DNA of 49,834 nucleotides, taken from the NCBI GenBank assembly GCA_029101305.1, contig JAQXQS010000124.1:1-49834 (forward strand), read 5' to 3'. A program made the position numbers and the translations under genes. The stretch is from Clostridia bacterium. Its GTDB lineage: Bacteria; Bacillota; Clostridia; Lachnospirales; Lachnospiraceae. Positions 2 to 48,099 of the stretch are shown here, one piece after another (position 1 is the stretch's first letter; every line of letters begins with the position of its first letter). The notes under the pieces were generated by a model that saw nothing but the letters and a program-made list of their open reading frames with translations, was not told the origin of the DNA and ran no database searches.

Positions 2-217
2 AGTAGAAAGTGGTTTAGACTTATTGCAAAACCTGCTGTTAATCAAGCAAGTATATCTACAATAGAGGTTTGTGCTTTTGAATTTTTGCTGCCGAAATTA
101 GAAGAACAAAAGAAAATTGCAAACTTTTTAAATACCCTCGATCACCTCATCACTCTTCACCAGCGGAAGTGCAATTATTCTTTTTACATGCGAAAAACAC
201 CATTTTCAAACAATTAA
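2..217 (+). CDS. hsdS: Type I restriction-modification specificity subunit HsdS, C-terminal fragment
   Basis: The reading frame is open from the window edge and stops with TAA at 215-217, so only about 71 C-terminal residues are visible. The stretch PKLEEQKKIANFLNTLD followed by HLITLHQRK is the classic end of the second conserved helix in HsdS proteins, which select the DNA target for the methylase-restriction complex. After HQRK the tail (CNYSFYMRKTPFSNN) does not resemble the usual leucine- and lysine-rich ending I know; it may be a local variant or the result of a past rearrangement. The hsdR start codon lies 20 bases downstream, so the two are probably co-transcribed. Confidence 0.85.
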   Translation, partial: SRKWFRLIAKPAVNQASISTIEVCAFEFLLPKLEEQKKIANFLNTLDHLITLHQRKCNYSFYMRKTPFSNN

Positions 218-237
218 TCACAAAGGAGAACATAACT

Positions 238-3207
238 ATGCCAGAATTAGAGTCAATGATAGAGAAAAAGTTAATTGATCAATTGGTTTATGGGGAATCT
301 CAGTGGGTTTACCGGGATGATTTGAAAACGGAGTCTGATTTATGGGCAAATTTCAGATATATTCTGGAACAGAATAATAAGGACAGGCTAAATGGGAAAG
401 GGCTGTCTGATTCTGAGTTTGAGCAGGTAAAGAACCAGTTGCAATTTCCCTCATTTTATAAGGCTGGTGAGTGGCTGGTTGGTGAAAATGGGAAAGTTCA
501 GGTTCATGTACAGCGGGATACGGAAAAACTGCATCTTGTAGTGATGAATCACGAACATATAGCTGGTGGAAGTAGTGTGTATGAGGTAATTAATCAGTAT
601 AATGCTTTAAAAACGGATGAGGACAGCAGGGCTGCGGAGAGAGACCGGCGGTTTGATGTTACCTTGATGATTAATGGTCTGCCAATGATACATATAGAAT
701 TAAAAAATAAGCATCATTCCTATATGGAAGGCTTTCGACAGATAAAAAAATATATTGCAGAAGGAAAATTTACTGGTATTTTTTCGGCGGTGCAGATGTT
801 TGTTGTTAGTAATGGTGCAGACACCAAGTATTTTGCAGCTGCTGGGGAAAATGAACTGAAGGCAGAATTTATGAGCGGCTGGGTAGATAAGGAGAATAAT
901 CCGGTGTCTGATTATCTGGCTTTTGCAAAGAGCGTTCTTCGAATTCCAGAAGCACATGAAATGATTGCCAGATATACAGTTCTGGATGAGGTTGCAAAGC
1001 AGCTGATTCTCCTTCGCCCATATCAGATTCATGCGATTGAATCTATACGGGATGCCTCAAAAAAAGGAAAGTCTGGGTTCGTATGGCATACAACCGGATC
1101 TGGGAAAACGTTGACATCCTATAAGGCAACCAGAAATTTATTGATGGATATCCCTGCAATTGATAAAGCTATATTTCTGATAGACCGGAAGGATCTGGAT
1201 GCACAGACAACTATGGCATTTCAGGCATATGCAAATAATGATCTGATAGATGTGGATGAAACAAATAATGTGGGGGATCTGAAGAAAAAGCTGAAATCAG
1301 GTGACCGCCAGGTTATTGTGACTACAATCCAGAAAATGCAGATTCTGATAGGAAAAAGGCTTCAGGAAGATACTCCGGAGTATACAAAGATTAAAAATTT
1401 GAAAATTGCATTTGTTGTAGATGAATGTCATAGAGCCGTTACGCCGAAAATGAAAAGAGAACTGGAACGCTTTTTCAGACGGTCTTTGTGGTATGGATTT
1501 ACTGGAACGCCAAGATTTTCAGAAAATCCTTATCCACAGATGGGAGATTTGCCTCGAACAACAAAAGATTTATATGGAGAATGTCTTCACCGTTATACTA
1601 TACAGAATGCAATTCATGATAAATCTGTATTAGGATTCCAGGTAGAGCATAATGGACCAAAGCATATTGCAGATGAAACTGACAGCAAAGCATATGAAAA
1701 TGAAACTCATATGTTGAAAGTTTTGGATATTATTTTGAACAAATCCTATCACAAACTTGGCTTTCAGAATGGAAAAGGACAGACATATGAGGGCATGCTT
1801 ACAACAAGTTCGATTCCTATTGCCCAGAAATATTATGAGCTGCTGACCAGAGTAAAAAATGGGGAAACTTCTCTTGTAATTGATGAAAAAATGAAACAGG
1901 TGCTTCCAGATTTTCCCAAATTTGCCATTACCTATTCGGTAACAGAAAATGAGGATGGCTCCTGCGTAAACCAGGAAAAAATGCAGAAATCTCTGGATGA
2001 TTATAATGGTATGTTTGGTACGAAATACGATGTTTCGCAGATACAGGGATATAATGCAAATTTAAATAAAAGGCTTGCCAGAAAAGCGCCAAAGTATAAG
2101 AGAAGAAGCGAACAGCTAGATCTGGTGATTGTAGTAGACAGATTGTTGACAGGTTTTGATGCGCCATGTATGTCTACCATATTCATCGATAGACAGCCCA
2201 TGGGACCACACGATCTGATTCAAGCATTTTCCAGGACTAACCGTATTTTGGATAAAAATAAAACATATGGACAGATTGTGACTTTCCAGGCTCCAAAGCT
2301 GTTTAAATCAAGTGTAGATAATGCAATAAAATTATATTCAGCGGGAAGTACGGGAATAGCAATAATGGCAGAGTGGGAAGAAGTGGAACCTGCATTCCGA
2401 AAAGCTCTTTTGGCACTTAGGGTTTGTGCAAAAACTCCTTCCGAAATTCCAAATATGTCTTTAAAAGAAAAGAAAATATTTGCCAAATTGTTTCAGTCCT
2501 TTGATAGTCTGTTTGCAGAGTTAAAGTCCTTTACCAAATACGATGATACGATGTTGGAGCAATATGGCATAACGGAAGCAGAATATGAGGATTATGTGGG
2601 ACATTATAAAAATGTAATGGAAGAAATTCGTCCTGATCCAGGTACGGACGACAAAGTTGATCCGGTTCCAGATCCAGACTATGAATTAATGGCGTATAGC
2701 CATACCCAAATTGATTATGAATATATCATCAATTTGATTCAAAATATTGTCACTCCGTCTGAGGGAGAAGAAGCAGTTACTCCAGAGGAACGGCAGAAGA
2801 AGATTGCAGAAGTAAGGCAGTATGTAGAAGAATTACGTAAGAATAATGAAAAAGTTGCGGATATTATGTCTACGTTAATAGATGAAATTGAGGTGGATGA
2901 GAAAAAGTACAAGGGTCAGTCTATTCTGAATATTGTGGAAAATACGAAACAAGATTGCGTGGAGCGAATCATTACTGATTTTTGCAGAACCTGGCATGCT
3001 TCGAAAGAGGATGTTATGTATGCTGCAGTTCATTATAGAAATGGACAAATTCCCAATGAGAGTGTAATCAAGTCAACCGCAGATTATACTAGTTATTATG
3101 AAACACAGGAAAGACCTTTGCCTAAATATACTTATTATAAGCGGTTGATAGAAGAGTTGAAAAAAACGTTGGAGGAAGAAGTCAAGCCACTGCTAATGAC
3201 AGCATAA
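238..3207 (+). CDS. hsdR: Type I restriction enzyme R subunit (HsdR)
   Basis: This is the motor and nuclease subunit of a type I restriction-modification complex: it translocates DNA using ATP and cuts unmethylated DNA. Of 989 residues, the N-terminal nuclease shows D140 and E154-x-K156 (PD-(D/E)xK type). The SF2 helicase core has Walker A TTGSGKT with K290, a DECH box at 395-398, the YGFTGTP motif and the QAFSRTNR motif VI. The C-terminal third is charged and helical, as expected for docking to the methylase core. The ATG at 238 is chosen because AAAGGAG lies just upstream and MPELESMIEKK is a typical HsdR start; an upstream in-frame ATG at 169 lies inside hsdS. Length is normal for the family. 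hsdM is presumably upstream of the window. Confidence 0.95.
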   Translation: MPELESMIEKKLIDQLVYGESQWVYRDDLKTESDLWANFRYILEQNNKDRLNGKGLSDSEFEQVKNQLQFPSFYKAGEWLVGENGKVQVHVQRDTEKLHLVVMNHEHIAGGSSVYEVINQYNALKTDEDSRAAERDRRFDVTLMINGLPMIHIELKNKHHSYMEGFRQIKKYIAEGKFTGIFSAVQMFVVSNGADTKYFAAAGENELKAEFMSGWVDKENNPVSDYLAFAKSVLRIPEAHEMIARYTVLDEVAKQLILLRPYQIHAIESIRDASKKGKSGFVWHTTGSGKTLTSYKATRNLLMDIPAIDKAIFLIDRKDLDAQTTMAFQAYANNDLIDVDETNNVGDLKKKLKSGDRQVIVTTIQKMQILIGKRLQEDTPEYTKIKNLKIAFVVDECHRAVTPKMKRELERFFRRSLWYGFTGTPRFSENPYPQMGDLPRTTKDLYGECLHRYTIQNAIHDKSVLGFQVEHNGPKHIADETDSKAYENETHMLKVLDIILNKSYHKLGFQNGKGQTYEGMLTTSSIPIAQKYYELLTRVKNGETSLVIDEKMKQVLPDFPKFAITYSVTENEDGSCVNQEKMQKSLDDYNGMFGTKYDVSQIQGYNANLNKRLARKAPKYKRRSEQLDLVIVVDRLLTGFDAPCMSTIFIDRQPMGPHDLIQAFSRTNRILDKNKTYGQIVTFQAPKLFKSSVDNAIKLYSAGSTGIAIMAEWEEVEPAFRKALLALRVCAKTPSEIPNMSLKEKKIFAKLFQSFDSLFAELKSFTKYDDTMLEQYGITEAEYEDYVGHYKNVMEEIRPDPGTDDKVDPVPDPDYELMAYSHTQIDYEYIINLIQNIVTPSEGEEAVTPEERQKKIAEVRQYVEELRKNNEKVADIMSTLIDEIEVDEKKYKGQSILNIVENTKQDCVERIITDFCRTWHASKEDVMYAAVHYRNGQIPNESVIKSTADYTSYYETQERPLPKYTYYKRLIEELKKTLEEEVKPLLMTA

Positions 3208-3235
3208 AGATTTACGACTATTTTTATTGTTTATG

Positions 3236-3246
3236 TCAGCGTAAGT
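3236..3246 (+). repeat. Left copy of inverted repeat flanking the recombinase gene
   Basis: TCAGCGTAAGT sits between hsdR and the recombinase gene. Its exact reverse complement, ACTTACGCTGA, occurs at 4235-4245 just after the recombinase stop. The pair could be recognition arms or a recombination site for the enzyme; this is inference from position only. Confidence 0.55.
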
Positions 3247-3270
3247 GATTTGGGAAAATGGAGGAAACTT

Positions 3271-4197
3271 ATGCAAAATGATATGAGCAATTCAGCGCTA
3301 TTTTGTGATTATTATGCACAGTGGGTAGAAATATACAAACGTGGGGCAATTCGGGAAGCAACAATGGCGAAGTACCTGATGACACAAAAATGGGTGGAAA
3401 AACTGGTACCTGCATTGAGAGTTTCGGAACTAACAAGAACGGCATATCAGAAGCTGTTGAATGATTACGCGAAAGAACATGAAAGACAGACAACTTTAGA
3501 TTTCCATCATCAGCTAAAAGGTGCAATTTTGGACGCAGTAGATGAGGGCTTGATTGAAAGGGATCCAACCAGAAAGGCAATTATCAAGGGAAAAACACCA
3601 CGTGCTAAAAAAATCAAATATCTGAATCAGTTTGAACTTCACACTTTAATTGCTGATTTAGATATAAAGGAAAAGGCAAACTGGGATTGGTTTATTCTTT
3701 TAGTTGCAAAGACCGGAATGCGTTTTTCGGAAGCTCTTGCTATTACACCGTCAGATTTTGACTTTTCCAGACAAACCTTGTCAATTAGTAAAACATGGGA
3801 TTACAAAGGAGAAGGAGGATTTCTGCCAACGAAAAACAAATCTTCTGTACGAAAAATTCAAATAGACTGGCAGATCGTTGTTAAATTTTCCGAGCTGACG
3901 AAGGGGCTTCCAGAAGATAAACCTATTTTTGTGGGAGATGCTAAGATTTATAACTCCACAGTAAATGACGTACTTACAAGACATTGTAAAAAATGTGGTA
4001 TTTCAGTAATCTCGATTCACGGCTTGCGGCATACACATGCGTCATTATTGTTGTTTGCTGGTGTATCAATTGCAAGCGTAGCGCGCAGATTAGGGCATGC
4101 GAGTATGACGACGACACAGAAGACATATCTTCATATTATTCAGGAACTTGAAAATAAGGATGTGGATCTGGTAATGAGAACTTTGTCTGGTTTATAG
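3271..4197 (+). CDS. Tyrosine recombinase / phage-type integrase linked to the type I RM locus
   Basis: 308-residue site-specific recombinase. The N-terminal SAM-like core-binding domain covers about residues 10-95 and the catalytic domain about 115-300. Catalytic residues are visible: R151 in TGMRFSEA, H250-x-x-R253 in HGLRHTHAS, H276 in LGHAS and nucleophile Y286 in KTYLHI. ATG 3271 is preferred because GAGG lies 7-8 bases upstream; a TTG start at 3250 would add seven residues. It follows hsdR by 63 bases. In many gut Firmicutes a recombinase at this place inverts hsdS halves to switch methylation specificity, so that is the most likely job. It could alternatively be the integrase of a lost mobile element, but no other mobile genes are beside it. 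Confidence 0.88.
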   Translation: MQNDMSNSALFCDYYAQWVEIYKRGAIREATMAKYLMTQKWVEKLVPALRVSELTRTAYQKLLNDYAKEHERQTTLDFHHQLKGAILDAVDEGLIERDPTRKAIIKGKTPRAKKIKYLNQFELHTLIADLDIKEKANWDWFILLVAKTGMRFSEALAITPSDFDFSRQTLSISKTWDYKGEGGFLPTKNKSSVRKIQIDWQIVVKFSELTKGLPEDKPIFVGDAKIYNSTVNDVLTRHCKKCGISVISIHGLRHTHASLLLFAGVSIASVARRLGHASMTTTQKTYLHIIQELENKDVDLVMRTLSGL

Positions 4198-4245: not shown

Positions 4246-4300
4246 TTATAAAAAAACAATTGCAATCCTAACCAATATTATATACAATAGTCTGAGCGCT

Positions 4301-4466
4301 CTAGAGCGTGTTTGAAAAATCATTCCTGCAATCTGCACGTCCCACTTTGCGGTATATTTTGCCCTCTTTCAGTCGGCGTAGCCCGCTACGCCTCATTCAA
4401 TCGGACAAAATCTCCCACAAATTGTGACGCACATCTTGCAGAAAGCCTTTTTCAAACACGCTCTAG
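4301..4466. repeat. 166-bp palindromic (MITE-like) intergenic element
   Basis: Perfect 19-bp terminal inverted repeats: CTAGAGCGTGTTTGAAAAA at 4301-4319 and its complement at 4448-4466. The interior also folds: CTGCAA near the left end pairs with TTGCAG near the right, ATTTTG with CAAAAT, and GGCGTAG with CTACGCC around a short loop near 4380. The whole unit could form one long cruciform or RNA hairpin. It encodes nothing convincing. Copies of the terminal sequence recur at 7617-7635, 18556-18573 and 25120-25135, so it belongs to a dispersed family. Confidence 0.85.
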
Positions 4467-4525
4467 CGTGTGTAAAAAAGACATTAAGCCGCACCCTGCG
4501 GGGCAGACGGCGAGCAATTGAATAT

Positions 4526-4594
4526 AAGGGCAAAGCAGCCGAAAGGCTGTGACGCAAAACTATAGGGCCTGTAAAATGGCAGCCAGCTGCAGAA
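4526..4594 (+). ncRNA. Cyclic-di-GMP-I (GEMM) riboswitch
   Basis: The sequence carries the GEMM-I landmarks in order: GGGCAAAG, a first hairpin GCAGCC-GAAA-GGCTGT capped by a GNRA tetraloop, then GACGCAAA, CTATAGGGCCT, and ATGGCAGCCAGCTGC of the second helix. GEMM-I aptamers bind cyclic di-GMP and control genes in cis. A strong intrinsic terminator starts about 20 bases later, giving a transcriptional-control layout. The first downstream gene is the split hybrid kinase at 4767. A c-di-GMP-metabolising protein is encoded at 7651-10515. The match is by eye against the known consensus. Confidence 0.85.
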
Positions 4595-4612
4595 TGAACG
4601 AAATAGGGATAA

Positions 4613-4650
4613 GTGCGTACTATGGTGAATACTGCAGTACGCGCTTTTTA
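4613..4650 (+). terminator. Intrinsic terminator downstream of the riboswitch (expression platform)
   Basis: Stem GTGCGTACT (4613-4621) pairs with AGTACGCGC (4636-4644, one G-U pair) and is followed by TTTTTATAT. It is placed where the regulatory terminator of a GEMM riboswitch would be. Confidence 0.8.
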
Positions 4651-4686
4651 TATAATAGGAAATTTCATTGGAATGCTCTGTTACAT

Positions 4687-4717
4687 AAAAAGCCCTGCCG
4701 GGCAGGATTCCTTTTTA
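4687..4717 (+). terminator. Second short terminator hairpin
   Basis: AAAAAG, then CCTGC-CGG-GCAGG at 4694-4706, then CTTTTT. The stem is short but GC-rich, with A-tract and T-tract on the two sides. It stands between the riboswitch and the kinase gene and could act as a second block to read-through. Confidence 0.55.
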
Positions 4718-4766
4718 TAGATTATCCATAAATATGTTGTAATAGAAAGTACGGTGCAAATTTAGA

Positions 4767-5483
4767 ATGAATAACCAGCTATACAAAGAGGAACTTCTGT
4801 ATTCAGTGGTGGAGCCCCAGCTATGTGAGGAGACATACGGGGCAATCCAGACGGCAATCCAGAACAATCATGCGGTAGGATTTATCGCAGGATATTATGA
4901 TGAACAGATGACAATTGCATATATAAGCCAGTATTTCCTGCACAACCTGGGATACAGCTATGAGGAATTCATGCAGGTAACCTCTGGTTCGTTGAAAAAT
5001 GTGGTTTACGGGGAAAATAGCTCCTTCGTAGAGTGCGGCCGATTCCAGAAAATCCAGGGGCATGGGGAAATGCAGATTATGTCCCGGGATGGAATACCGC
5101 TGGATATAACCTGTTATAAGACGGACACGGTAGATGCAAAGGGAGTTCCCATGTGGGTGCTTTCCGCACATATGGATCACATGCAGGAGAACCTGAAGCT
5201 GGTGAACCAGGTAATCCGTTCCGGATTCTGGTCAGTGGAGTGTGATGGAGATGGGAAATATAAGTCCGTTTTTTTCAGCCATGAATTTCGTGCCATGCTG
5301 GGATACCATGACACATTGGATTTTCCAAACCAGCTGGATATTTGGGAAGCTTCCATTCATCCAGATGATCGGGCTGGGGTAGAGGAAGCATTTTTCGGTG
5401 CTATCGCGGATAAGACCAATCAGAGAAAATATGATGTAAAATACCGCATGCGCCTGGCTGACGGCAGCTATGAATGGTTTTAG
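4767..5483 (+). CDS. N-terminal PAS half of a hybrid histidine kinase (cut by in-frame TAG)
   Basis: 238 residues holding two PAS-type sensor modules: about 35-130 (IAGYYDEQMTIAYISQYF, LGYSYEEFM) and about 145-238 (GFWSVECDGDGKYKSVFFSHEFRAMLGY, WEASIHPDDRAGVEEAF). The frame ends at TAG 5481-5483 in the middle of the conserved PAS phrase DGSYEWF/DSAEITRRPDG, yet the same frame continues without another stop into the kinase half at 5529. The full gene would be 4767-7619, about 950 codons. No membrane segment or signal peptide is seen, so it is probably cytoplasmic. The start has only a weak ribosome site. It is the first gene after the c-di-GMP riboswitch. It may be a pseudogene half or a stand-alone PAS protein. 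Confidence 0.75.
   Translation: MNNQLYKEELLYSVVEPQLCEETYGAIQTAIQNNHAVGFIAGYYDEQMTIAYISQYFLHNLGYSYEEFMQVTSGSLKNVVYGENSSFVECGRFQKIQGHGEMQIMSRDGIPLDITCYKTDTVDAKGVPMWVLSAHMDHMQENLKLVNQVIRSGFWSVECDGDGKYKSVFFSHEFRAMLGYHDTLDFPNQLDIWEASIHPDDRAGVEEAFFGAIADKTNQRKYDVKYRMRLADGSYEWF
5481..5483 (+). other. In-frame amber codon interrupting the hybrid kinase gene
   Basis: TAG in the sequence TGGTTTTAGGACAGC. Homology of the PAS domain continues in the same frame on both sides, so one substitution (for example from CAG or AAG) explains it; no base insertion or deletion is needed. Confidence 0.85.
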
Positions 5484-5528
5484 GACAGCGCCGAGATCAC
5501 CAGACGTCCAGATGGAGCGGCCTACCGT

Positions 5529-7619
5529 ATGGCTGGTATTTTCGTGAATGTAGATAAAGAAGAGAAACTTTTGCGATACACACAGCAGGTGGATGCACAG
5601 CGCCAGGAGCTGAGCGCGAAAAATAAGATTATGGATCTGCTGATTCAGGGAACGGTAAAACTGGTAGACCGTTATGCGGCATGTGATTTTGAAGAAGATA
5701 TTTATCATTTTTACAGTCAGAGTCTGGAAGATTCTGTTTATGCACCAACTGGGGCATATCACGATTTTGTGATAGTAATGGCGTCAAGATTTAAGACCGT
5801 TTCCACAGATCTTACGCTGGAACAGGCCTTTTCCCCGGAAAATATACGGGAGAACCTGAAAAAAACAGATGATATTTACCGTTTTGAATATTGCTCCAAA
5901 GATGAAAAACAGTTTAAATCCGTTGCAATCACGCCTTTGTCCTGGTCTGAAAAGGAAAAGGGAAAAGTACGTGCTGTGTTGCTTATGTCACAGGATATCA
6001 CGGAAGAAAAAATGGTGGAGATCCAGTCCAGGAAGGCACTTCGCGAGGCTTACGAGGCAGCAGAGCGGGCCAGCAAGGCCAAAACGGAATTTTTGTCCAA
6101 TATGTCCCATGATATCCGTACGCCTATGAATGCCATTGTGGGAATGACAGCGATCGCAGGAGCGAATATTGAGAATCAGGATCGTGTGGTAGATTGTCTG
6201 GGAAAAATCACCCAGTCCAGCCGCCATCTTCTCAGCCTAATCAATGAAGTGCTGGATATGTCACGTATTGAAAGTGGAAAGATCGCGCTGGTGGAAGAGG
6301 AGTTCAATCTGTCTGATCTTTGTGATAATCTGGTTTCCCTGACGAAAGCGCAGACAGACCTGCACCATCATGAATTCAATATCCGGATCAACCGGATCGA
6401 GCACGAAGATGTATGCGGTGACAGCATGCGTATCCAGCAGCTGGTCACCAATATTTTGTCAAATGCAGTGAAATATACACCAGATGGCGGACGAATTGAA
6501 TTTACCATCCGGGAGCTCCCCACCAATTCAACCGGTCTTGGCTGCTATGAATTCGTGGTGCAGGACAATGGTATTGGAATGACGGAAGAATTCCAGAAGG
6601 TGATGTTTGAGCCATTTACCCGCGCAGATGATAAAAGAACTTCCAAAATCCAGGGAACCGGTCTTGGTATGGCGATTGCCAGAAATTTTGCCAGGATGAT
6701 GAATGGCGATATTAAGGTGGAAAGTGCTCCTGGTAAAGGAAGTAAATTTACCATCACCATTTTCCTGAAGCAGCAGAATAAAGAAATCAAAGCAATTGAT
6801 GAGCTGATCAATCTGCCAGTGCTTGTGGTAGATGATGACAGGGACTGTTGTGAAAACACAGTGGCACTTTTAAATGAGATCGGTATTGATGGGGAATGGG
6901 TAACTTCCGGTGCGGAGGCAGTGGCACGGACAACAGAGCGATATGAGAGGGATGACAATTATTTTGCCGTTATCATTGACTGGAAAATGCCGGGGATGGA
7001 CGGAATCGAGACAACCAGGCAGATCCGTAAAAAAGTAGGAAATGATGTGACGATCATTATTTTGTCTGCTTATGATTATGCGGAGATTGAGCAGGAGGCC
7101 AGGGAAGCCGGCGTGGACGAGTTTATTGCCAAGCCGTTGTTCCGTTCACGCCTGACAGCAACGCTTAAGAATATTATCCAGGGAAAACCAAGCGCTGCAG
7201 CCAGACATTACCTGGAGGATATTTCCAATTGTGATTATACGGGCAAGAGAGTCCTGCTGGTGGAGGACAACGACCTGAACAGGGAAATTGCCCAGGAAAT
7301 TATCGGAATGACAGGCGCTATTGTTGAGACAGCGGAGAATGGGAAAGATGCTGTTGGAATGATGACAGCAGCTAATGAGGGATACTATGACCTTGTGTTT
7401 ATGGATATTCAGATGCCGGTTATGAATGGGTATGAGGCGACTGCTGCGATCCGTTCTCTTCACAGGCCGGATGGGAAAGAAATCCCTATCGTAGTCATGA
7501 CGGCGAATGCATTTGCAGAAGATATCCTGCTGGCGAAGAATGCGGGAATGAATGAGCATATTGCCAAGCCGCTGGATATGACAAGGCTGCGGGATGTGAT
7601 GAGACGGTGGCTGCAGTAG
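5529..7619 (+). CDS. Hybrid histidine kinase, C-terminal half: HisKA, HATPase and two receiver domains
   Basis: 696 residues from ATG 5529 (GGAG lies 12 bases upstream, so restart after the TAG is possible). The first 160 residues finish the PAS region and a coiled linker. HisKA has H194 in SNMSHDIRTPMNAI. The HATPase domain has NILSNAVKYTPDGG, DNGIGM and GTGLGMA. Two receivers follow: the first with D484 in IIDWKMPGMDG, the second starting VLLVEDNDLNRE with phospho-acceptor D626 in FMDIQMPVMNG and lysine in HIAKPL. The transmitter and both receivers look intact, so this half could still be active if translated. It is convergent with the HD-GYP/GGDEF gene 31 bases away. No output domain is seen; phosphotransfer to another protein is likely. 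Confidence 0.85.
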   Translation: MAGIFVNVDKEEKLLRYTQQVDAQRQELSAKNKIMDLLIQGTVKLVDRYAACDFEEDIYHFYSQSLEDSVYAPTGAYHDFVIVMASRFKTVSTDLTLEQAFSPENIRENLKKTDDIYRFEYCSKDEKQFKSVAITPLSWSEKEKGKVRAVLLMSQDITEEKMVEIQSRKALREAYEAAERASKAKTEFLSNMSHDIRTPMNAIVGMTAIAGANIENQDRVVDCLGKITQSSRHLLSLINEVLDMSRIESGKIALVEEEFNLSDLCDNLVSLTKAQTDLHHHEFNIRINRIEHEDVCGDSMRIQQLVTNILSNAVKYTPDGGRIEFTIRELPTNSTGLGCYEFVVQDNGIGMTEEFQKVMFEPFTRADDKRTSKIQGTGLGMAIARNFARMMNGDIKVESAPGKGSKFTITIFLKQQNKEIKAIDELINLPVLVVDDDRDCCENTVALLNEIGIDGEWVTSGAEAVARTTERYERDDNYFAVIIDWKMPGMDGIETTRQIRKKVGNDVTIIILSAYDYAEIEQEAREAGVDEFIAKPLFRSRLTATLKNIIQGKPSAAARHYLEDISNCDYTGKRVLLVEDNDLNREIAQEIIGMTGAIVETAENGKDAVGMMTAANEGYYDLVFMDIQMPVMNGYEATAAIRSLHRPDGKEIPIVVMTANAFAEDILLAKNAGMNEHIAKPLDMTRLRDVMRRWLQ

Positions 7620-7637
7620 AGTGTGTTTGAAAAATTC
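7617..7637 (+). repeat. Single end of the CTAGAG-type repeat at a gene junction
   Basis: TAGAGTGTGTTTGAAAAATT matches the end of the 4301-4466 palindrome with one change. The kinase stop codon TAG (7617-7619) is part of the match. Confidence 0.6.
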
Positions 7638-7650
7638 TAAATAGTATTGT

Positions 7651-10515
7651 TTATTTTGTATCGGCCATTTCATTGCCGGTTGGTGTGTCACCATTCTCCG
7701 ACATGGTCAGATATTCATACCCTGGATGGAAATCATAGTTTTCCGTCTGTTTGTAATATTGCATGAAAATACGCTCCATAATATTGGGGATTTCCGTTTC
7801 CATAGGCTCGAACAGGATGATCAGATATTGCATGGCGCTGTATCTGGTACAGATATCTACCCTTCGGATGGTTTTGCGGATCGCTTGTTCCATCTGGGAA
7901 AGGGCCTGTTCGATTTCTTCAATATGAGGAAGGGTATCCACCGTGGTTTCCATGGTGACCATGACCAGATAACAATGACAGCTGCTGCGGATAATGAGCT
8001 GCCGCATATATTCATATTGTCTGGAGAAATCACGGTAGCTGAGGTCAAGGGCGCCGGAGTAGTTACCACTTTCCCGAAGTGTTTTTGCAACCTGTCTCAG
8101 ATCTTTGCCAATGCCAGGTGCATCTGGCTTCTGGTAGCTGATCTGCTGGTAGAAGGAAAACTGGTTTTTCCCATTTTGTTTCACGTAGTAGAGAGCTTTA
8201 TCTGCTTTGGAATAGCAGTCTGCAAATGTATCACTGATTGTACACATGTATAGTCCGGCAGATAATGCAGCATATCGGATCTCAGAGTCTGCTTCTGCAA
8301 TGGAGTGGAACTGCTTAAATAATCCAGTCATTATTTCGGATACAGACGCAGCAGTTACATCAGGCAGGAACAGAAGGAATTCATCACCTCCAAGACGACA
8401 GGCGATTCCGTCTGTAGCGTAACGGGAAAGCAGATTGCCCAGATTTTTCAATGCACGGTCACCAGCTTTGTGTCCGTGGATGTCATTGATCTTTTTCAGG
8501 TTATCCATATCCAGGAAAATAAGGCAGCCATTGTGCTTCTGCATTAGTTCTGCAATCAGCCGTTCACCCAGACTACGCATGGGAAGACCGGTAAGGAAAT
8601 CGTAGCTTTTGGTATCCTCCTGGCTCTTGATGGTGGTAACCACATCAGATATAAACTTATTAATGGTGTGTTCCAGTTCTGGCTGTGACAGGGTGACTGT
8701 CTCGGCAGAAGATGCGTTTGCGGAGGAATCAATCTGGGAAAGACGGTTTTCATTCAGCAGTTTAAGGAAAACATCTGCAATTTCCGGGTCAAACTGTGTT
8801 CCACGGTTCTTACTGATTTCTTCCCGGATCATTTCTATCGGGAGGGCATTTCGGTAAATCCTGCGGGAATTCATGGCATCATAGCTGTCTGCGACTGCTA
8901 CGATACGTGCGTGAAGGGGAATATCAGTTCCAGCCAGTCCATCCGGATAGCCTTTACCATCAAAACGTTCATGATGGTTCCGGGCAATTTCAATCACATG
9001 AGGAATCAAAGTAACATCTTTCAGGATCTCTGCACCAATAACCGTATGTCTTTTTATAAGATTATATTCTTCATCGGTCAGCCGGGAAGGCTTGTTCAGA
9101 ATCTGGTCAGGAATACCAATTTTACCGATATCATGGAGATAAGTGGCGTGCCGGATATGCTCCACATCTTCAGGAGCCCAGCCTAGCTCTTTGGCAATCA
9201 ATGCGGAGTACTCTGCTACACGGTGGGAATGACCGCGGGTGTATTCGTCTTTTGCCTCAATGGTTGTAGCAAGCGTCTGCATCATCTGCAGGGACATTTT
9301 TTCGGTCTGCTTCTGCTTTTCCAGAAGTTCCTGCTTCTGGCGTTGCAGTTCCATGTCCTGGACATGGCTGGAGGTGCGGATAATATTTACAAAAAACAGA
9401 ATGAGCATGCCGATACCGATAAAAATACCAGATAGTACTGGGACAAAATATGCGGAAATCATTTCCACTGCAACACAAAGCAAGGCAAGCAGCAGGCCAA
9501 GAAGCAGAAGATGGTCAGTGCGGCTCTGGCTTGTACGGATGTAAAGGCAGAGATGAATAAAAATAGTTAAAAATGTCACAGTAAGTATAATATGTGCAAC
9601 CGGAAGCGTCTCAATATAATCTGCGATGCCCAGGGCAGTGAGACTGGTGCAGACGACAAAGTTGAGAACTGCAATTCCACCTATATACCTGTAAAGGCGG
9701 CGGTGAAGCCCCTGCTGGACACTGTCCGCATAGAGAAGCAGGGGAATGGGGCACAGCATGATCATGACGAAGCATAAGGAACCAAGAGAAGACGCATTTT
9801 GAACCAGCAGCTGGCGAATCTTAGATTCCCCAAGCATCCAGATAGCGCCCATGACCATGCACCAGCCCAGGTATTCCATATCAAAGCGCGTGTGGTAAAT
9901 GGCGCCAAGCGCAAAGCTGAATGAAATAGTGATCAGCCCGGCAAACAGGATGAAGAAAGCGATATATGTAGGAAGACCGAATTGATTGAAAATGGCCTGC
10001 CAGATATCTGCTTTGTTGCCACAGTAAACGGAGTTGACGATACCGGAATAATTAGTAGTGTAGGTAGTCAGCTCGATCCGGAGCTCTTTGCCTGCATCTT
10101 CGGAAGAAACCGGACAGAATACATAGCGGCTGGCAGAATTTTTCCCAACCAGGCGGGTATCATGGGTATTGTAACGCTCCCGCAATTCGCCGCCCACATA
10201 GAAATCTACATCCTGCAGGGAGGAGCGGATGGCGAAAGAGGTTTCGTTAAAATCCAGAGGAAGTATGGTGGTGATCACCATGGTCTGACCAGCTGGAAGA
10301 TTATAATCACCGGGAACCGTGATTTCTTCGCTGGTTCCATCTGCTTTTTGCCAGGTGAAGGTGCCGGAGTAGAGAACGGAACCGGAATTGGTATCAGGTG
10401 TTCGTTCGTCAGTTCCGAAAATCTGCATATAAAGAAACCACCCAAGAATGGCAAGCATCAAAATATAGAAAAAATAACGAGAGCCCTGACAGACGGGGGC
10501 TTTTTTTTCTTTCAA
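7651..10515 (-). CDS. Membrane c-di-GMP enzyme with HD-GYP and GGDEF domains
   Basis: 954-residue polytopic membrane protein predicted to both break down and make cyclic di-GMP. One N-terminal membrane segment (about 14-32) is followed by an extracytoplasmic beta-rich region (about 45-170), then about seven helices (about 178-390), like 7TMR-DISM receptors. A coiled linker leads to HD-GYP at about 415-590, with H461-D462 (YLHDIGKIGIP) and HHERFDGKGYP from 514. A GGDEF domain follows with the intact signature at 709-713. The last 170 residues look like a degenerate second GGDEF-like fold lacking the signature. The start is TTG at 10515, supported by AAGGAG seven bases upstream. It lies convergent to the split hybrid kinase and divergent from the second hybrid kinase. 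With a c-di-GMP riboswitch 3 kb away, it is a natural source or sink of that ligand. Confidence 0.92.
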   Translation of the reverse strand: MKEKKAPVCQGSRYFFYILMLAILGWFLYMQIFGTDERTPDTNSGSVLYSGTFTWQKADGTSEEITVPGDYNLPAGQTMVITTILPLDFNETSFAIRSSLQDVDFYVGGELRERYNTHDTRLVGKNSASRYVFCPVSSEDAGKELRIELTTYTTNYSGIVNSVYCGNKADIWQAIFNQFGLPTYIAFFILFAGLITISFSFALGAIYHTRFDMEYLGWCMVMGAIWMLGESKIRQLLVQNASSLGSLCFVMIMLCPIPLLLYADSVQQGLHRRLYRYIGGIAVLNFVVCTSLTALGIADYIETLPVAHIILTVTFLTIFIHLCLYIRTSQSRTDHLLLLGLLLALLCVAVEMISAYFVPVLSGIFIGIGMLILFFVNIIRTSSHVQDMELQRQKQELLEKQKQTEKMSLQMMQTLATTIEAKDEYTRGHSHRVAEYSALIAKELGWAPEDVEHIRHATYLHDIGKIGIPDQILNKPSRLTDEEYNLIKRHTVIGAEILKDVTLIPHVIEIARNHHERFDGKGYPDGLAGTDIPLHARIVAVADSYDAMNSRRIYRNALPIEMIREEISKNRGTQFDPEIADVFLKLLNENRLSQIDSSANASSAETVTLSQPELEHTINKFISDVVTTIKSQEDTKSYDFLTGLPMRSLGERLIAELMQKHNGCLIFLDMDNLKKINDIHGHKAGDRALKNLGNLLSRYATDGIACRLGGDEFLLFLPDVTAASVSEIMTGLFKQFHSIAEADSEIRYAALSAGLYMCTISDTFADCYSKADKALYYVKQNGKNQFSFYQQISYQKPDAPGIGKDLRQVAKTLRESGNYSGALDLSYRDFSRQYEYMRQLIIRSSCHCYLVMVTMETTVDTLPHIEEIEQALSQMEQAIRKTIRRVDICTRYSAMQYLIILFEPMETEIPNIMERIFMQYYKQTENYDFHPGYEYLTMSENGDTPTGNEMADTK

Positions 10516-15631: not shown

Positions 15632-17704
15632 ATGAAGAAATGGAAAAAGAAGACAAAAATAATCGTACTGCTTATATTTTTAATCTTACTTGTATTATTC
15701 GCGGCATTATGCTGGAAAAAGCGCCGGGGAATTTATAATACTTATATGAAGCTGACAGGCCAGGAAATCCCCTACTCCGTGAAGGAAAAAAGAAAAAAGG
15801 CTTATGGTTATTATGAGCAGAAGCTGAACGTATCTATGAATCTGGAAGATACTATTCCCATAGCAGAAAACGATGATTCCGCAGCAGCGGTAGAAACTAC
15901 GATTCCCCAAGAGGAGACGTTAGTGGCAGCTTCTTATGAAATCGACAGGCAGCTGCAGGCTGAACAGGAAAATGGTTACAGCTGGGAAGAACCCATGGTG
16001 ATCCAGAACCCTTATCAGAGTGCGCCGCTTACTGCCGTTGTGATTTTTGATACACCAGAAGAATGTGCAGTCCGTTTTACCGTGAAGGGAAAAACAGAGG
16101 CGGCAGATATCAGTGGAGAAATAGAAGCCAGTGTTTCCCACAGAGTACCGGTAATCGGTCTTTATCCGGATATGGACAATACGGTGGTGCTGGAGCTTCT
16201 GGATGAGAATGGAAAGGTAACTGCTTCCCAGGAACTGACGATTACAACAGAGGCTTTGCCGGAGAAGCTGACAGACGCAGTGAAACCGGTAAAAGTCAGT
16301 GGAGAATCTGCATTTGAGCTTACGATGGTGTATGGACAACAGACGACATATCCATTTGCTTACGACTGTATGGGAGATATCCGTTGGTATCTGAGCGGGG
16401 AAAAAACAACCGGTCTGTATATGTTGTCTAATTGCCGGATGATAGTAGCAGATAAGGCTGGATATGTCCCATCGCAGGAAAAACCGCAGCCAACCAATCT
16501 ATATGAGCTGGATTATCTGGGGCGTGCATATACCATGTATTATGTGGCAGCAGGAAATCATCATGAAGTGATTGAAAAGGAGCCAGGAGGAAATCTTCTT
16601 GTACTTACCAGCTCACTGGAAGGACATATTGAAGATAAGATTCAGGAAATTGACAGGCAGACTGGTGAAGTGGTAAATGAGCTTATTATGGGAGACATTA
16701 TCGACAGTGAATATGAAGACAGGGTTGACTGGACCCATTTAAATACCGTGTCCTACCAGCCGGAAACAGATACCATTGTGATCAGTCCGAGAAACCTGGA
16801 ATCTGTGATCAAGATTAACTGGACGACAAAGGAAATCCAGTGGATCCTATGTGATCCGAGATTCTGGGAAGGCACGGAATATGAGAAATATGTACTTCAG
16901 CCAGAGGGCGATTTTGTCTATCATTTCCAGCAGCATACAGCATATCAGCTGGATGCAGACCTGGATGGCGACAGTGAGACTGTTGAGATCAGTATGTTTG
17001 ACAATCACGCTGTGAAGCTGAGAAAAAAGGCCATGGAATATTACGATGGAAAGAAAGAATCCTATCTGCTGGTATATTCTGTAAATGAAAAAGAGAAAAC
17101 AGTACAGCAGATTAAGAAGCTTCCGGTTCTCTGGTCGAATATTACCTCTTCTACTATTTATGATGAAGAGAGTAATCATATTTTTGGCATGAGTGGACAT
17201 GTTAAAGTTGCGGAAGACAAAAGACATGGAATGACCTATGAATTTGATTACGATACAGAAGAGCTCATAAATCAGTTCAGCCTGAAAGATTATTTTTACC
17301 GGGCATCAGAAATGAAGCTTGATTATAACGACCTTGCCGCTCCTATGGAGCTGAAAGAAAATTATATTCTTGGTGAACTTTTCCAGCCAGTAAAAACAAA
17401 CAAGTGGCTCTGGACGAAAAAACCGGAACAGATACTGGAAGATGAAGACGTTACGTTCCATCTTACGGGTCAGGTCCTTTATGTGGGGACTTATGATCAT
17501 CAGATTTCCCAGATCCTTTTTCATGGAAAGGACAATACCTATGTGTATGATACGACAGATATCAGACTGCATGATGAGGATTATCTGGCGTATTACGAAC
17601 ACCTTCCGGTACCGCTGCAGGGATTGGCTGCAGATGAATATGAAATTTATGTAATGTATCAGGATGGATTTTATGATACTGCACAGAAAATTACGATAAA
17701 ATAA
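15632..17704 (+). CDS. Membrane-anchored arylsulfotransferase (ASST family)
   Basis: 690 residues. One N-terminal membrane helix (about 9-29) is followed by an extracytoplasmic beta domain (about 105-215) and a six-bladed propeller-like catalytic domain. ASST enzymes move sulfate from one phenyl sulfate ester to another phenol through a sulfo-histidine, without PAPS. The expected active-site set is visible: H310-H311 (GNHHEVIE), H369-x-N371, R387 (ISPRNLESV) and H435 (FQQHTAYQ), which should be the sulfated histidine. It lies 45 bases after the sensor kinase with AAGGA ahead of the ATG. It is paralogous to 18594-20735; the aligned catalytic residues even fall at the same numbers. The substrate is not predictable from sequence. 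Confidence 0.85.
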   Translation: MKKWKKKTKIIVLLIFLILLVLFAALCWKKRRGIYNTYMKLTGQEIPYSVKEKRKKAYGYYEQKLNVSMNLEDTIPIAENDDSAAAVETTIPQEETLVAASYEIDRQLQAEQENGYSWEEPMVIQNPYQSAPLTAVVIFDTPEECAVRFTVKGKTEAADISGEIEASVSHRVPVIGLYPDMDNTVVLELLDENGKVTASQELTITTEALPEKLTDAVKPVKVSGESAFELTMVYGQQTTYPFAYDCMGDIRWYLSGEKTTGLYMLSNCRMIVADKAGYVPSQEKPQPTNLYELDYLGRAYTMYYVAAGNHHEVIEKEPGGNLLVLTSSLEGHIEDKIQEIDRQTGEVVNELIMGDIIDSEYEDRVDWTHLNTVSYQPETDTIVISPRNLESVIKINWTTKEIQWILCDPRFWEGTEYEKYVLQPEGDFVYHFQQHTAYQLDADLDGDSETVEISMFDNHAVKLRKKAMEYYDGKKESYLLVYSVNEKEKTVQQIKKLPVLWSNITSSTIYDEESNHIFGMSGHVKVAEDKRHGMTYEFDYDTEELINQFSLKDYFYRASEMKLDYNDLAAPMELKENYILGELFQPVKTNKWLWTKKPEQILEDEDVTFHLTGQVLYVGTYDHQISQILFHGKDNTYVYDTTDIRLHDEDYLAYYEHLPVPLQGLAADEYEIYVMYQDGFYDTAQKITIK

Positions 17705-17774
17705 AAGAAAGTGTTTACTCATACTGTCGACGGTTGGGGAGCACTATAGAGAGCAGATTTGAGGAGTGTGGAAA

Positions 17775-18542
17775 ATGAAGAAAAAAGTTTTATTGAGGTT
17801 AATGGGAATTGTTTTGGCGGCTGGTATGATGGCTGGTTGTGGTAGCAGCAATAGTGCTACAGAAGAAAGCACGAAGACAGAAAGCGCAGCAGACAGCGAG
17901 GATACTGCTTCTGCATCAGAAAGTGATGACAAGGAAAGCACAGATGAAGCAAAAGATGCTGGCGTTCAAAACGCAGATGAAAACGCAGATGAAAATGCTG
18001 AGGAAGATACTGAGGCTGCTGCGGCAGAGGATTCTGAGGAAGAAGATAGCCAGGAGGAAGAGTCTGGCGAAGACGAAGAGGACGCAAGTGAGGGCACTAA
18101 GGCGAATACTGCAAGAACCAACAGTAACTATGGGGATGTAGTTTCAGTATCAGGCTGGAATATTACAGTGGAAGATGTGGAGATCAATTCTTCTCTGGAA
18201 AATGTAAGCGTGGATCTTGGCTATACAGGTGTGGAGACAAGCGATTACAAAAAAGAGGCAGATGCAGGCAAAACCTTCTGTCTCATTAAATTAAAGATTG
18301 AAAAAGATGGAAGCAAAGAGACTCTGGACTGGGCAAACCTGAAGCTGACAGATGGCGAAGGCAATGAGTATACCAGAATGGATGATGAATTTATTACAGA
18401 GCTTGGTATGACACGTATGGCAGGAACTTCTTTGAATTTTGGTTCAAACGAAGGCTGGATCGCATTTGAAATCAATGAGAATGCGGAAGGTCTGGAGCTT
18501 AGCTATCCATTTGAGGAAGAAGCATATAATTACGCATTGTAA
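17775..18542 (+). CDS. Acidic-linker lipoprotein with DUF4352-like domain
   Basis: 255 residues with a signal peptide and lipobox MMAGC (C22), so it should be lipid-anchored outside the membrane. Residues about 25-115 are a low-complexity linker rich in Ser, Ala, Asp and Glu, typical of cell-wall spacers. The C-terminal domain (about 120-255: SGWNITVEDVEI, FCLIKLKIEKDG, GWIAFEINENAEG) resembles the immunoglobulin-like DUF4352 family. ATG 17775 is chosen over GTG 17766, which overlaps the GAGGAG ribosome site. It sits between the two arylsulfotransferase genes and may help hold or present them or their substrates; this is inference. Confidence 0.8.
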   Translation: MKKKVLLRLMGIVLAAGMMAGCGSSNSATEESTKTESAADSEDTASASESDDKESTDEAKDAGVQNADENADENAEEDTEAAAAEDSEEEDSQEEESGEDEEDASEGTKANTARTNSNYGDVVSVSGWNITVEDVEINSSLENVSVDLGYTGVETSDYKKEADAGKTFCLIKLKIEKDGSKETLDWANLKLTDGEGNEYTRMDDEFITELGMTRMAGTSLNFGSNEGWIAFEINENAEGLELSYPFEEEAYNYAL

Positions 18543-18555
18543 TGATACTGGAATA

Positions 18556-18573
18556 CTAGAGCGTGTTTGAAAA
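18556..18573 (+). repeat. Single copy of CTAGAG repeat end
   Basis: CTAGAGCGTGTTTGAAAA is identical to the terminus of the 4301-4466 palindrome. Here it stands alone between the lipoprotein and the second arylsulfotransferase gene, 14 bases before the ribosome site AAGGAGG. Confidence 0.7.
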
Positions 18574-18593
18574 GATAGTACAAGGAGGCCGGC

Positions 18594-21091: not shown

Positions 21092-21457
21092 GTGCTTCTG
21101 GTGGAAGATAACATGCTGAATGCGGAGATCGCTACAGAGCTCCTTAAAAGTATCGGCCTGGTCGTTGACTGGGCAGAGAATGGAGCTGAGGGTGTGAAGA
21201 AATTCCAGGATTCTGGTGTAGGCGAATACTTTGCAGTGTTTATGGATATTCAGATGCCGGTTATGGATGGTGTGGAGGCTACAAAGTGCATCAGGGGATG
21301 TGAACGTCAGGATAATGACATTCCGATCTTTGCCATGACAGCTAATACCTTTGCAAGTGACCGGAAAATCTGCCGGGAAGCAGGAATGAACGGTTATATT
21401 GCCAAGCCTGTGAATATTAAAGACATTGAGAGTACTTTGATTGAGGGAACAGAATAA
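21092..21457 (+). CDS. Stand-alone receiver domain (possible remnant of a hybrid kinase)
   Basis: 121 residues consisting of one receiver domain: LLVEDNMLNAEIA, phospho-acceptor D52 in FMDIQMPVMDG, TANTF, and GYIAKPVNI with the conserved lysine. It is closely similar in style to the terminal receivers of the hybrid kinases at 5529 and 10781. The start is poor: GTG 21092 lacks a well-spaced ribosome site, and the in-frame codons just upstream (DDKH) read like the natural lead-in to a kinase-fused receiver, cut by a stop at 21062. The fold appears complete, so it could work as a single-domain regulator, but a leftover 3' end of a deleted hybrid kinase is equally likely. Confidence 0.6.
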   Translation: MLLVEDNMLNAEIATELLKSIGLVVDWAENGAEGVKKFQDSGVGEYFAVFMDIQMPVMDGVEATKCIRGCERQDNDIPIFAMTANTFASDRKICREAGMNGYIAKPVNIKDIESTLIEGTE

Positions 21458-30376: not shown

Positions 30377-30382
30377 TTTCCC

Positions 30383-30549
30383 GATGCCACGGTTTGTTCC
30401 GCAGCTACGCTGCTCTCACAATCCGGGGGGCATGCGGAATTCGCTGATTTACTGCGTAAATCGCTATTTCCTCATGTTTGGCGGGTCAAAAGGTCAAAAG
30501 CTTTATCGTGCAAGCATGAACAGCTTTCTGACCTTTTGACCCTGGCATC
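30383..30549. repeat. 167-bp palindromic intergenic element
   Basis: Outer arms GATGCCA (30383-30389) and TGGCATC (30543-30549); a strong inner stem GGGTCAAAAGGTCA (30483-30496) pairs with TGACCTTTTGACCC (30529-30542). The tip contains TGCAAGCATG. Its left part (GTTCCGCAG...CTCTCACAATC, 30395-30423) resembles 47950-47978 in the element before the GH3 gene. Confidence 0.75.
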
Positions 30550-30587
30550 ATAAAAAAATGAAGTTACAGAGATTAGGAGGATTTACC

Positions 30588-47938: not shown

Positions 47939-48099
47939 TGAAAGTCGATTGTTCCGCACCTCTGGTGCTCCCACAATCAACGACTGTATTCGTAATCCGG
48001 GCTATCGCCCTACTTACTCATATAGTCTAGCCTGTGCGATATCCATAAATCCACCATGCAAGCATGGTGAATTCATGGCTGCCGCACAGGACTTTCATA
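47937..48099. repeat. 163-bp palindromic intergenic element before the GH3 gene
   Basis: Arms TATGAAAGTC (47937-47946) and GACTTTCATA (48090-48099) are perfect complements. Inner stems are CCTGTGCG (48031-48038) with CGCACAGG (48083-48090), and CACCATG with CATGGTG around CAAG at 48052-48069. The part at 47950-47978 resembles 30395-30423. The stretch 47798-47903 holds no gene that I can support. Confidence 0.7.

What the first reader, a model, noticed from the sequence alone, without database searches (positions are those of the whole stretch)
4526..10515. c-di-GMP riboswitch beside a two-headed c-di-GMP enzyme and a split kinase
A GEMM-I-type aptamer with a terminator platform leads into a hybrid kinase gene, and the convergent gene makes a membrane protein with both HD-GYP and GGDEF domains. 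Sensor RNA, phosphorelay and c-di-GMP turnover within 6 kb suggest a local feedback circuit. The link between ligand and target gene is inference; the riboswitch could once have controlled another gene.
Basis: partly seen in the sequence, partly recalled or inferred. Interest (0 to 1): 0.72.

Follow-up and report, generated by a model that had tools for sequence, protein, structure and literature searches.

The report
c-di-GMP riboswitch controlling a kinase gene
A gut bacterium carries a genuine RNA switch for the messenger c-di-GMP in front of a sensor-kinase gene, a pairing kept in many related bacteria and apparently passed between genera, although in this genome the kinase gene is interrupted by a stop codon.

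Summary
The riboswitch is real: RF01051 (c-di-GMP-I), 4519-4594, 62 bits against a gathering score of 35, followed by terminator-like hairpins. Of 23 testable loci found by the kinase's N-terminal region alone, 19 have RF01051 directly upstream, 1 at the operon head and 3 none; of six distant homologues (21-27% identity) none has it. In a sister sub-family the block is 92-97% identical between genera whose rpoB is 76.3-81.5% identical, mostly among different neighbours, suggesting horizontal exchange. The 'split kinase' is one frame, 4767-7619, with a single in-frame TAG at 5481-5483. The TAG may be real, since three isolates carry other single stops, or a base error, since this MAG's rpoB also has an in-frame stop. 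The HD-GYP-GGDEF enzyme is real, but the kinase was not beside its orthologues in 5 genomes, so the 'local feedback circuit' is not supported. Likely mechanism: c-di-GMP causes termination and lowers kinase synthesis (OFF); the direction is inferred from C. difficile, and folding did not settle it. Known kind, new member.

The parts
4519..4594 (+). c-di-GMP-I (GEMM-I) riboswitch aptamer, 76-nt form
   Evidence: RF01051 62.0 bits, gathering 35; paired columns covary in 19 aptamers of the family
4611..4646 (+). intrinsic terminator 1 of the expression platform, followed by a U run
   Evidence: -16.8 kcal/mol hairpin; stem pairs P 0.95-0.99
4693..4718 (+). second terminator-like hairpin (readable on both strands) with U run
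   Evidence: 2 sites found, shuffles 0.6 +/- 0.7; sequence
4767..7619 (+). hybrid histidine kinase reading frame: N-terminal part without Pfam match, PAS_3, HisKA, HATPase_c, REC, REC; one internal stop
   Evidence: homologues with uninterrupted frames
4767..5480 (+). N-terminal part of the kinase up to the stop (HKa), the query for the linkage tests
5481..5483 (+). in-frame TAG that splits the kinase frame
5529..7619 (+). kinase core as listed by ORF finders; ATG at 5529 is internal to the frame
7651..10515 (-). protein with HD-GYP and GGDEF domains; neighbour, probably not part of the unit
   Evidence: orthologues elsewhere without the kinase
4301..4466 (.). 166-bp palindromic repeat (MITE-like) immediately upstream of the riboswitch leader
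   Evidence: inverted repeat, 74% complementary; many copies in this genome and matches in 20 of 64 genomes of the genus
4260..4288 (+). promoter-like site upstream of the repeat (weak)
   Evidence: 9 of 12 matches; number found not above shuffles

Best explanation
This is a c-di-GMP-I riboswitch with a transcription-terminator platform that controls the hybrid histidine kinase gene 4767-7619. The two form an old pair that close relatives mostly keep, and in one sister sub-family a promoter-riboswitch-kinase block has been exchanged between genera of gut Lachnospiraceae. Shown: the aptamer, the terminator hairpins, the conserved linkage, and the high identity of the block against rpoB. Inferred: when c-di-GMP is high the transcript ends at 4646 (OFF switch) and little kinase is made; when it is low the sensor phosphorelay is made. 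In this genome the unit is probably impaired: the kinase frame carries an in-frame TAG (unless that is a base error), and a multicopy palindromic repeat separates the aptamer from the only upstream promoter-like site. The HD-GYP-GGDEF gene is most likely a chance neighbour that contributes, with the genome's other GGDEF domains, to the cell's c-di-GMP pool.
For: RF01051 hit. Covariation in the family: 98.6% of cells paired, 21 double-changed cells against 5.9 in shuffles and at most 8 in slid controls, 5 double-changed pairs against 3.0. Linkage found from the protein side: 7 of 7 full-length N-terminal homologues (4 partial rows dropped) have RF01051 upstream; over unique loci, 23 testable, 19 directly upstream, 1 at the operon head. 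Control: of 32 kinase-core homologues outside G000, all 9 known members of the N-terminal family have a riboswitch place in front, and 1 of the other 23, whose N-termini I did not compare (Fisher 3.6e-7; places compared by eye; the nine are related, so the p-value overstates). A hairpin with U run follows the aptamer in the 21 leaders printed. Horizontal exchange: 25 between-genus pairs with rpoB 76.3-81.5% against kinase locus 92.1-97.3%, block ends close to the gene, mostly different neighbours. OFF: the confirmed class I switches of C. difficile were uniformly off (PMC6200980, abstract and passages).
Against: Three of 23 close loci have no riboswitch (L127, L130, L132) and none of six distant homologues has one at gathering score in the roughly 2 kb upstream examined; further weak rows were not tested. 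Three of the 19 have degenerate aptamers (L017, L018, L147; 39.7-42.4 bits). The number of further pair types (12) does not exceed shuffles (12.2). A stricter hairpin scan finds a terminator in 35 of 40 leaders of the short aptamer form, and not in family member L150. No antiterminator was established: 5 of 32 leaders at p<=0.05, window p 0.12. OFF is not universal: a C. difficile class I switch with 10-fold induction (PMC3649979, passage) and Geobacter GEMM-Ib switches whose genes fell when the cGAMP cyclase was deleted (PMC6456294, passage) are reported. The promoter argument is weak: 49 of 118 leaders lack a listed -10 hexamer. Exchange was shown for the 1068-aa sub-family, not for the window's divergent copy. 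No expression data.
Confidence: 0.66

Rival explanations
1. Local feedback circuit: the adjacent HD-GYP-GGDEF enzyme sets c-di-GMP, which sets kinase synthesis, and the kinase acts back on the enzyme.
For: All parts lie within 6 kb. Other c-di-GMP-I riboswitches of the genus precede c-di-GMP enzymes (14 of 78 classifiable places). In G001 a different GGDEF gene lies 1.4 kb from the kinase's riboswitch (L019 11051-11521).
Against: The kinase is not in the stretches examined around the enzyme's orthologue in 5 genomes. No riboswitch precedes the enzyme gene. 5 of 31 HisKA matches lie within 5 kb of a GGDEF match. No Pfam output domain was found in the kinase, and nothing shows that it contacts the enzyme.
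Confidence: 0.08
2. The in-frame TAG is a base error of the MAG; the cell's kinase gene is intact and the riboswitch unit is functional.
For: The same genome's rpoB, an essential gene, has a single clean in-frame TAA, so single-base errors or strain mixing probably occur in this assembly. No other stop in the kinase frame.
Against: Single in-frame stops also occur in records of named isolates: E. ramulus L134, C. comes L136, Brotaphodocola L131, and two further copies are truncated (L125; L213). Loss of this kinase is therefore not rare.
Confidence: 0.4
3. The stop is tolerated: two proteins are made, a sensor-only protein (238 aa) and a kinase core from an internal start near 5529.
For: An ATG at 5529 with GGAG upstream (one search prints the stretch); both halves keep their domains.
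Against: 16 of 24 loci of the family have one uninterrupted frame. TAG is an ordinary stop in 5 of 28 window genes and no pyrrolysine synthetase scores above cut-off.
Confidence: 0.1
4. The riboswitch is an orphan left over from another gene.
For: A multicopy repeat (4301-4466) and a recombinase gene lie just upstream. A second such riboswitch of the genome (C158) is followed by a 141-aa kinase remnant and then an unrelated-looking ORF.
Against: The riboswitch-kinase order in 19 of 23 close loci; leader and kinase move together in the exchanged sub-family.
Confidence: 0.06

Closest known systems
c-di-GMP-I (GEMM-I) riboswitches, RF01051
   Same: Sequence and structure match above gathering score, terminator platform, sense orientation upstream of a signalling gene. 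GEMM RNAs in front of c-di-GMP enzyme and signalling genes are already described (PMC3971182, passage; PMC7266159, passages).
   Different: Nothing found in the aptamer; the target is a hybrid histidine kinase family for which my searches found no report.
cmrRST of C. difficile, a phase-variable signal-transduction operon under a c-di-GMP riboswitch (PMC6837544, passages)
   Same: c-di-GMP riboswitch controls phosphorelay genes.
   Different: There the switch is Cdi-2-2 (class II), acts positively, and has an invertible element. Here it is class I with terminators and a single hybrid kinase gene.
Bc1 riboswitch of Bacillus thuringiensis (PMC11218506, abstract and outline)
   Same: Class I aptamer with two intrinsic terminators in the leader.
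   Different: Bc1's terminators are 28 bp apart and its downstream genes did not follow intracellular c-di-GMP. The function of the window's second hairpin is unknown.
C. difficile class I switches such as flgB Cdi-1-3 (PMC6200980, abstract and passages)
   Same: Class I aptamer; basis for the inferred OFF direction.
   Different: The negatively regulated loci named there encode flagella, an adhesin, a metalloprotease and hypothetical proteins.

Membership tests
c-di-GMP-I riboswitch (RF01051) | covariance-model score above gathering | tested here: met
   62.0 vs 35 bits
c-di-GMP-I riboswitch (RF01051) | helices supported by covariation in relatives | tested here: met
   12 pairs, 98.6% of cells paired, 21 double-changed cells against 5.9 shuffled; further pair types 12 against 12.2, not in excess; the distal P3 part was left out because the two aptamer forms differ in length there
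c-di-GMP-I riboswitch (RF01051) | expression platform before a sense gene | tested here: met
   terminator hairpin 4611-4646 and kinase ATG 4767
c-di-GMP-I riboswitch (RF01051) | binds c-di-GMP rather than cGAMP | not testable with these tools
   needs in-line probing; the specificity positions known to me are recalled, not from a call
c-di-GMP-I riboswitch (RF01051) | ligand-dependent switch of the terminator, ON or OFF | tested here: inconclusive
   5 of 32 leaders with p<=0.05 for a P3/terminator antiterminator; window p 0.12
hybrid histidine kinase | HisKA, HATPase_c and receiver domains | tested here: met
hybrid histidine kinase | uninterrupted frame | tested here: not met
   TAG at 5481-5483; may be an assembly error
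GGDEF plus HD-GYP protein | both domains above Pfam cut-off | tested here: met
   GGDEF 112.5 bits, HD_5 131.1 bits; GGDEF and HD...GYP letters visible
GGDEF plus HD-GYP protein | cyclase and phosphodiesterase activity | not testable with these tools
   needs enzyme assay
local riboswitch-kinase-enzyme module | adjacency kept in relatives | tested here: not met
   0 of 5 genomes with the enzyme orthologue; in one of them (G068) the contig is only 4.8 kb
cmrRST-type system | class II riboswitch | tested here: not met
   class I here; no RF01786 match in the genome, but no control genome rang
cmrRST-type system | DNA-binding response regulators in the operon | tested here: not met
   kinase gene is followed by a convergent gene

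The most novel reading that the evidence does not exclude
A compact cassette (promoter, c-di-GMP-I riboswitch, hybrid kinase; about 3.6 kb, in some genomes within a longer 7.5-kb block) is exchanged horizontally as one unit among gut Lachnospiraceae genera, so that recipients gain a sensor kinase already wired to their c-di-GMP level. It is often lost again by single stop codons or aptamer decay. The same kind of N-terminal part with the same kind of riboswitch also occurs on a GGDEF output (L111, L115).
Probability: 0.6. Interest if true: 0.55.

Novelty: new member of a known kind. Interest (0 to 1): 0.42.

Why it matters
c-di-GMP seems little studied in commensal Lachnospiraceae: a search for c-di-GMP, riboswitch and Blautia returned one paper, whose Blautia passage concerns another riboswitch (open-licence PMC only). 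In this genus at least 32 of 78 classifiable c-di-GMP-I riboswitches precede kinases or c-di-GMP enzymes, so the messenger may set part of the cell's own sensory inventory. A horizontally exchanged riboswitch-kinase block present in sequenced strains of B. wexlerae and B. massiliensis makes this testable. For the window itself the value is a correction: the riboswitch-kinase link holds, the local circuit does not.

Tried and rejected
Single-protein scan of genome contigs with the N-terminal part: no relative; the extra scan that the tool then allows was made with an alignment, 16 loci. Antiterminator by duplex energies: weak, so ON/OFF was left open. Internal deletion of a PAS-like region in the window's kinase: considered from the longer relatives and rejected, because L217 and L218 have frames of similar length (951 and 958 aa). 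Recoded TAG: rejected. Chance linkage: rejected. c-di-GMP-II in this genome: none found, but no control rang. Literature searches listed no report of this kinase family under a riboswitch; the library is open-licence PMC only. PMC3649979, PMC6456294 and PMC9495176 were read as passages only.
Full report
What is there. cmscan of the window gives RF01051 (c-di-GMP-I riboswitch) at 4519-4594 on the + strand with 62.0 bits, E 8.1e-10, over the whole model. The genome (3.52 Mb, 226 contigs, 93.7% complete) has three such places; it is in the genus that holds genomes matching records of Blautia schinkii, B. luti, B. wexlerae and B. massiliensis. Downstream come a hairpin at 4611-4646 with a U run (stem pairs at probability 0.95-0.99), a second hairpin at 4693-4707 that reads as a terminator on both strands, and a start codon at 4767. 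Aptamers of the same gene family covary: 98.6% of cells paired over 12 pairs, 21 double-changed cells against a shuffled mean of 5.9, 5 double-changed pairs against 3.0; further pair types (12) do not exceed shuffles (12.2) (19 sequences, 18 distinct; the distal part of P3 was not counted because two aptamer lengths occur).

The split kinase. The frame 4767-7619 holds PAS_3, HisKA, HATPase_c and two receivers; its first 165 residues have no Pfam match. It has exactly one internal stop, TAG at 5481-5483. It is not two genes by design: most homologues keep one frame. TAG ends 5 of 28 window genes and no pyrrolysine synthetase passes its cut-off, so recoding is unlikely. Whether the stop is real is open. 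Against: rpoB of the same genome has a single clean in-frame TAA, which in an essential gene points to a base error or strain mixture in this assembly. For: of 24 unique loci of this family, 6 are interrupted. These are the window; L134 (TGA at residue 136), L136 (TAA at 547) and L131 (TGA at 173), all in records of named strains and otherwise 93-97% identical to the B. wexlerae protein; L125 (loses the kinase core); and L213 (match ends at residue 827 of the B. wexlerae protein). 16 show no stop (L126, L127, L128, L129, L132, L133, L135, L137, L138, L140, L188, L214-L218), one (L130) was not classified, and one (L139, the contig of L111) has a GGDEF output instead.

Does the riboswitch belong to the kinase? 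I searched for the N-terminal part (4767-5480) without reference to riboswitches. In 31 genomes seven full-length matches were found (four further rows match only the C-terminal half of the query and were dropped); all seven have RF01051 upstream. The genome-contig scan with alignment A1 gave 16 loci, and the family search of 397 genomes gave 13 strong matches (E 3.7e-87 or better) that include the N-terminal part; after removing duplicates (and contig lengths) 24 unique loci remain. L131 begins 244 bases from a contig end and cannot be judged. Of the other 23, 19 have RF01051 directly upstream (L137 by blastn identity to an aptamer; L133, L135, L139 and L140 are the contigs of L054, L058, L111 and L055, whose aptamers are), one (L126) has it at the head of a two-kinase operon, and three have none (L127, L130, L132). 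Three of the 19 are degenerate (L017, L018, L147; 39.7-42.4 bits). One search also lists much weaker rows. Of those that reach into the N-terminal part I took six (G350, G136, G444, G135, G418, G407; 21-27% identity to the window's protein): none has an RF01051 match at gathering score in the roughly 2 kb upstream. The linkage is thus a property of the close family. As a control, of 32 kinase-core homologues outside G000, a riboswitch place precedes all 9 known members of this N-terminal family and 1 of the other 23, whose N-termini I did not compare (Fisher 3.6e-7; places compared by eye; the nine are related, so the p-value overstates).

How general. RF01051 occurs in 39 of 64 genomes of the genus, 38 over the cut-off; the search used strict filters, so this is a lower bound. 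I looked at its 108 places: 24 have a withheld (N) downstream gene, 6 have no ORF or lie at a contig edge, and of the other 78 a conservative rule finds 18 histidine kinases and 14 GGDEF, EAL or HD-GYP proteins; 46 are neither (14 of them match solute-binding proteins). The rule misses broken genes, the window's own among them.

Horizontal exchange. In eight genomes of six genera the best-aligned stretch of the kinase locus (2.3-3.7 kb) is 92.1-97.3% identical at the DNA level in all 28 pairs, while rpoB loci are 76.3-81.5% identical in the 25 between-genus pairs. In named loci that keep an intact aptamer (B. wexlerae, E. ramulus ATCC 29099, B. sp. MSJ-9, B. sp. Marseille-P3087, B. massiliensis, C. 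comes) the similar block runs from about 50-170 bases before the aptamer, or from its first bases in C. comes, to within about 60 bases after the kinase stop. The neighbours mostly differ; B. wexlerae and P3087 share a nearby transporter-like gene, and E. ramulus and MSJ-9 share one gene on opposite sides. Fusicatenibacter, C. comes, B. luti and B. schinkii share a downstream solute-binding-like gene, and for the first three the block extends to about 7.5 kb. The Fusicatenibacter block starts after the aptamer and the B. luti aptamer is degenerate, so there the riboswitch did not stay with the kinase. This fits repeated exchange of a promoter-riboswitch-kinase block with later losses. The window's copy is outside this recent group (37-62% amino-acid identity).

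The neighbour. 7651-10515 encodes HD-GYP and GGDEF domains. Orthologues (E <= 1e-100) are in G001, G004, G040 and G068 (70-73%) and G061 (55-57%), and in none does the examined stretch hold the kinase or the other window neighbours tested (for G068 the contig is only 4.8 kb). The genome has 29 GGDEF and 31 HisKA matches, and 5 of the 31 HisKA matches lie within 5 kb of a GGDEF match, two of them the window's own and one in the same frame. On the other side, in G001 a different GGDEF gene lies 1.4 kb from the kinase's riboswitch. The adjacency by itself is not evidence of a circuit.

Mechanism. The 21 leaders I printed (20 distinct loci, one of them, L003, outside the family) have a hairpin and U run after the aptamer. 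A stricter scan finds one in 35 of 40 leaders of the short aptamer form; family member L150 is among the five without. In C. difficile the confirmed class I switches were uniformly off in response to c-di-GMP (PMC6200980, abstract and passages), although an earlier study reports one class I target with 10-fold induction (PMC3649979, passage), and cGAMP-type GEMM-I switches of Geobacter behave as on (PMC6456294, passages). I therefore infer, without certainty, an OFF switch: high c-di-GMP, termination, little kinase. I could not demonstrate the antiterminator. In the window a 166-bp palindromic repeat, with many copies in this genome and matches in 20 of 64 genomes of the genus, ends 52 bases upstream of the aptamer; the stretch between shows no -10-like hexamer of my list, unlike L015, L126 and L049, and the one promoter-like site lies beyond the repeat. 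This is suggestive only: 49 of 118 leaders fail the same hexamer test. No Pfam output domain was found in the kinase; its partner is unknown.

Verdict. The riboswitch-kinase link is raised from inference to well supported within the close family. The local circuit is not supported. The kind is known (c-di-GMP riboswitch controlling signalling genes); the new part is the kinase family and its exchange as a block.

Noticed in passing
window 4301-4466: MITE-like 166-bp palindrome flanked by CTAG on both sides (by eye), with a dozen further 92-98% identical copies listed in this genome and matches in 20 of 64 genomes of the genus.
   Followed up: partly
L210 (G000:C128): rpoB of the window's own genome carries a single in-frame TAA, a warning about base errors or strain mixture in this MAG.
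   Followed up: yes
L003 (G000:C158:17461-17536, - strand): A second c-di-GMP-I riboswitch of this genome precedes a 141-aa remnant, 44% identical to the N-terminus of another riboswitch-led hybrid kinase (L084); a GGDEF match with a stop lies about 3 kb away.
   Followed up: partly
L089, L093, L096, L113, L121 and L070, L071, L075: c-di-GMP-I riboswitches of the genus also precede solute-binding lipoproteins, including one with a 5'-nucleotidase C-terminal domain match whose look-alike (by eye) follows the kinase directly in L132 and L136.
   Followed up: no
L082 (also L078, L079): A riboswitch-led protein combining a MotA/TolQ/ExbB match with an EAL domain (L078 and L079 by clustering).
   Followed up: no
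window 30382-30550 and 47939-48097, - strand: Two Clostridiales-1 RNAs (RF01699), 101.6 and 111.4 bits.
   Followed up: no
window 169-4197: HsdR restriction subunit followed by a tyrosine recombinase gene, an arrangement often tied to phase-variable type I systems (recalled).
   Followed up: no
window 15632-20735: Two arylsulfotransferase (ASST) genes beside a two-component pair.
   Followed up: no
window 21092-21457: Lone receiver-domain ORF, possibly the remnant of a hybrid kinase.
   Followed up: no
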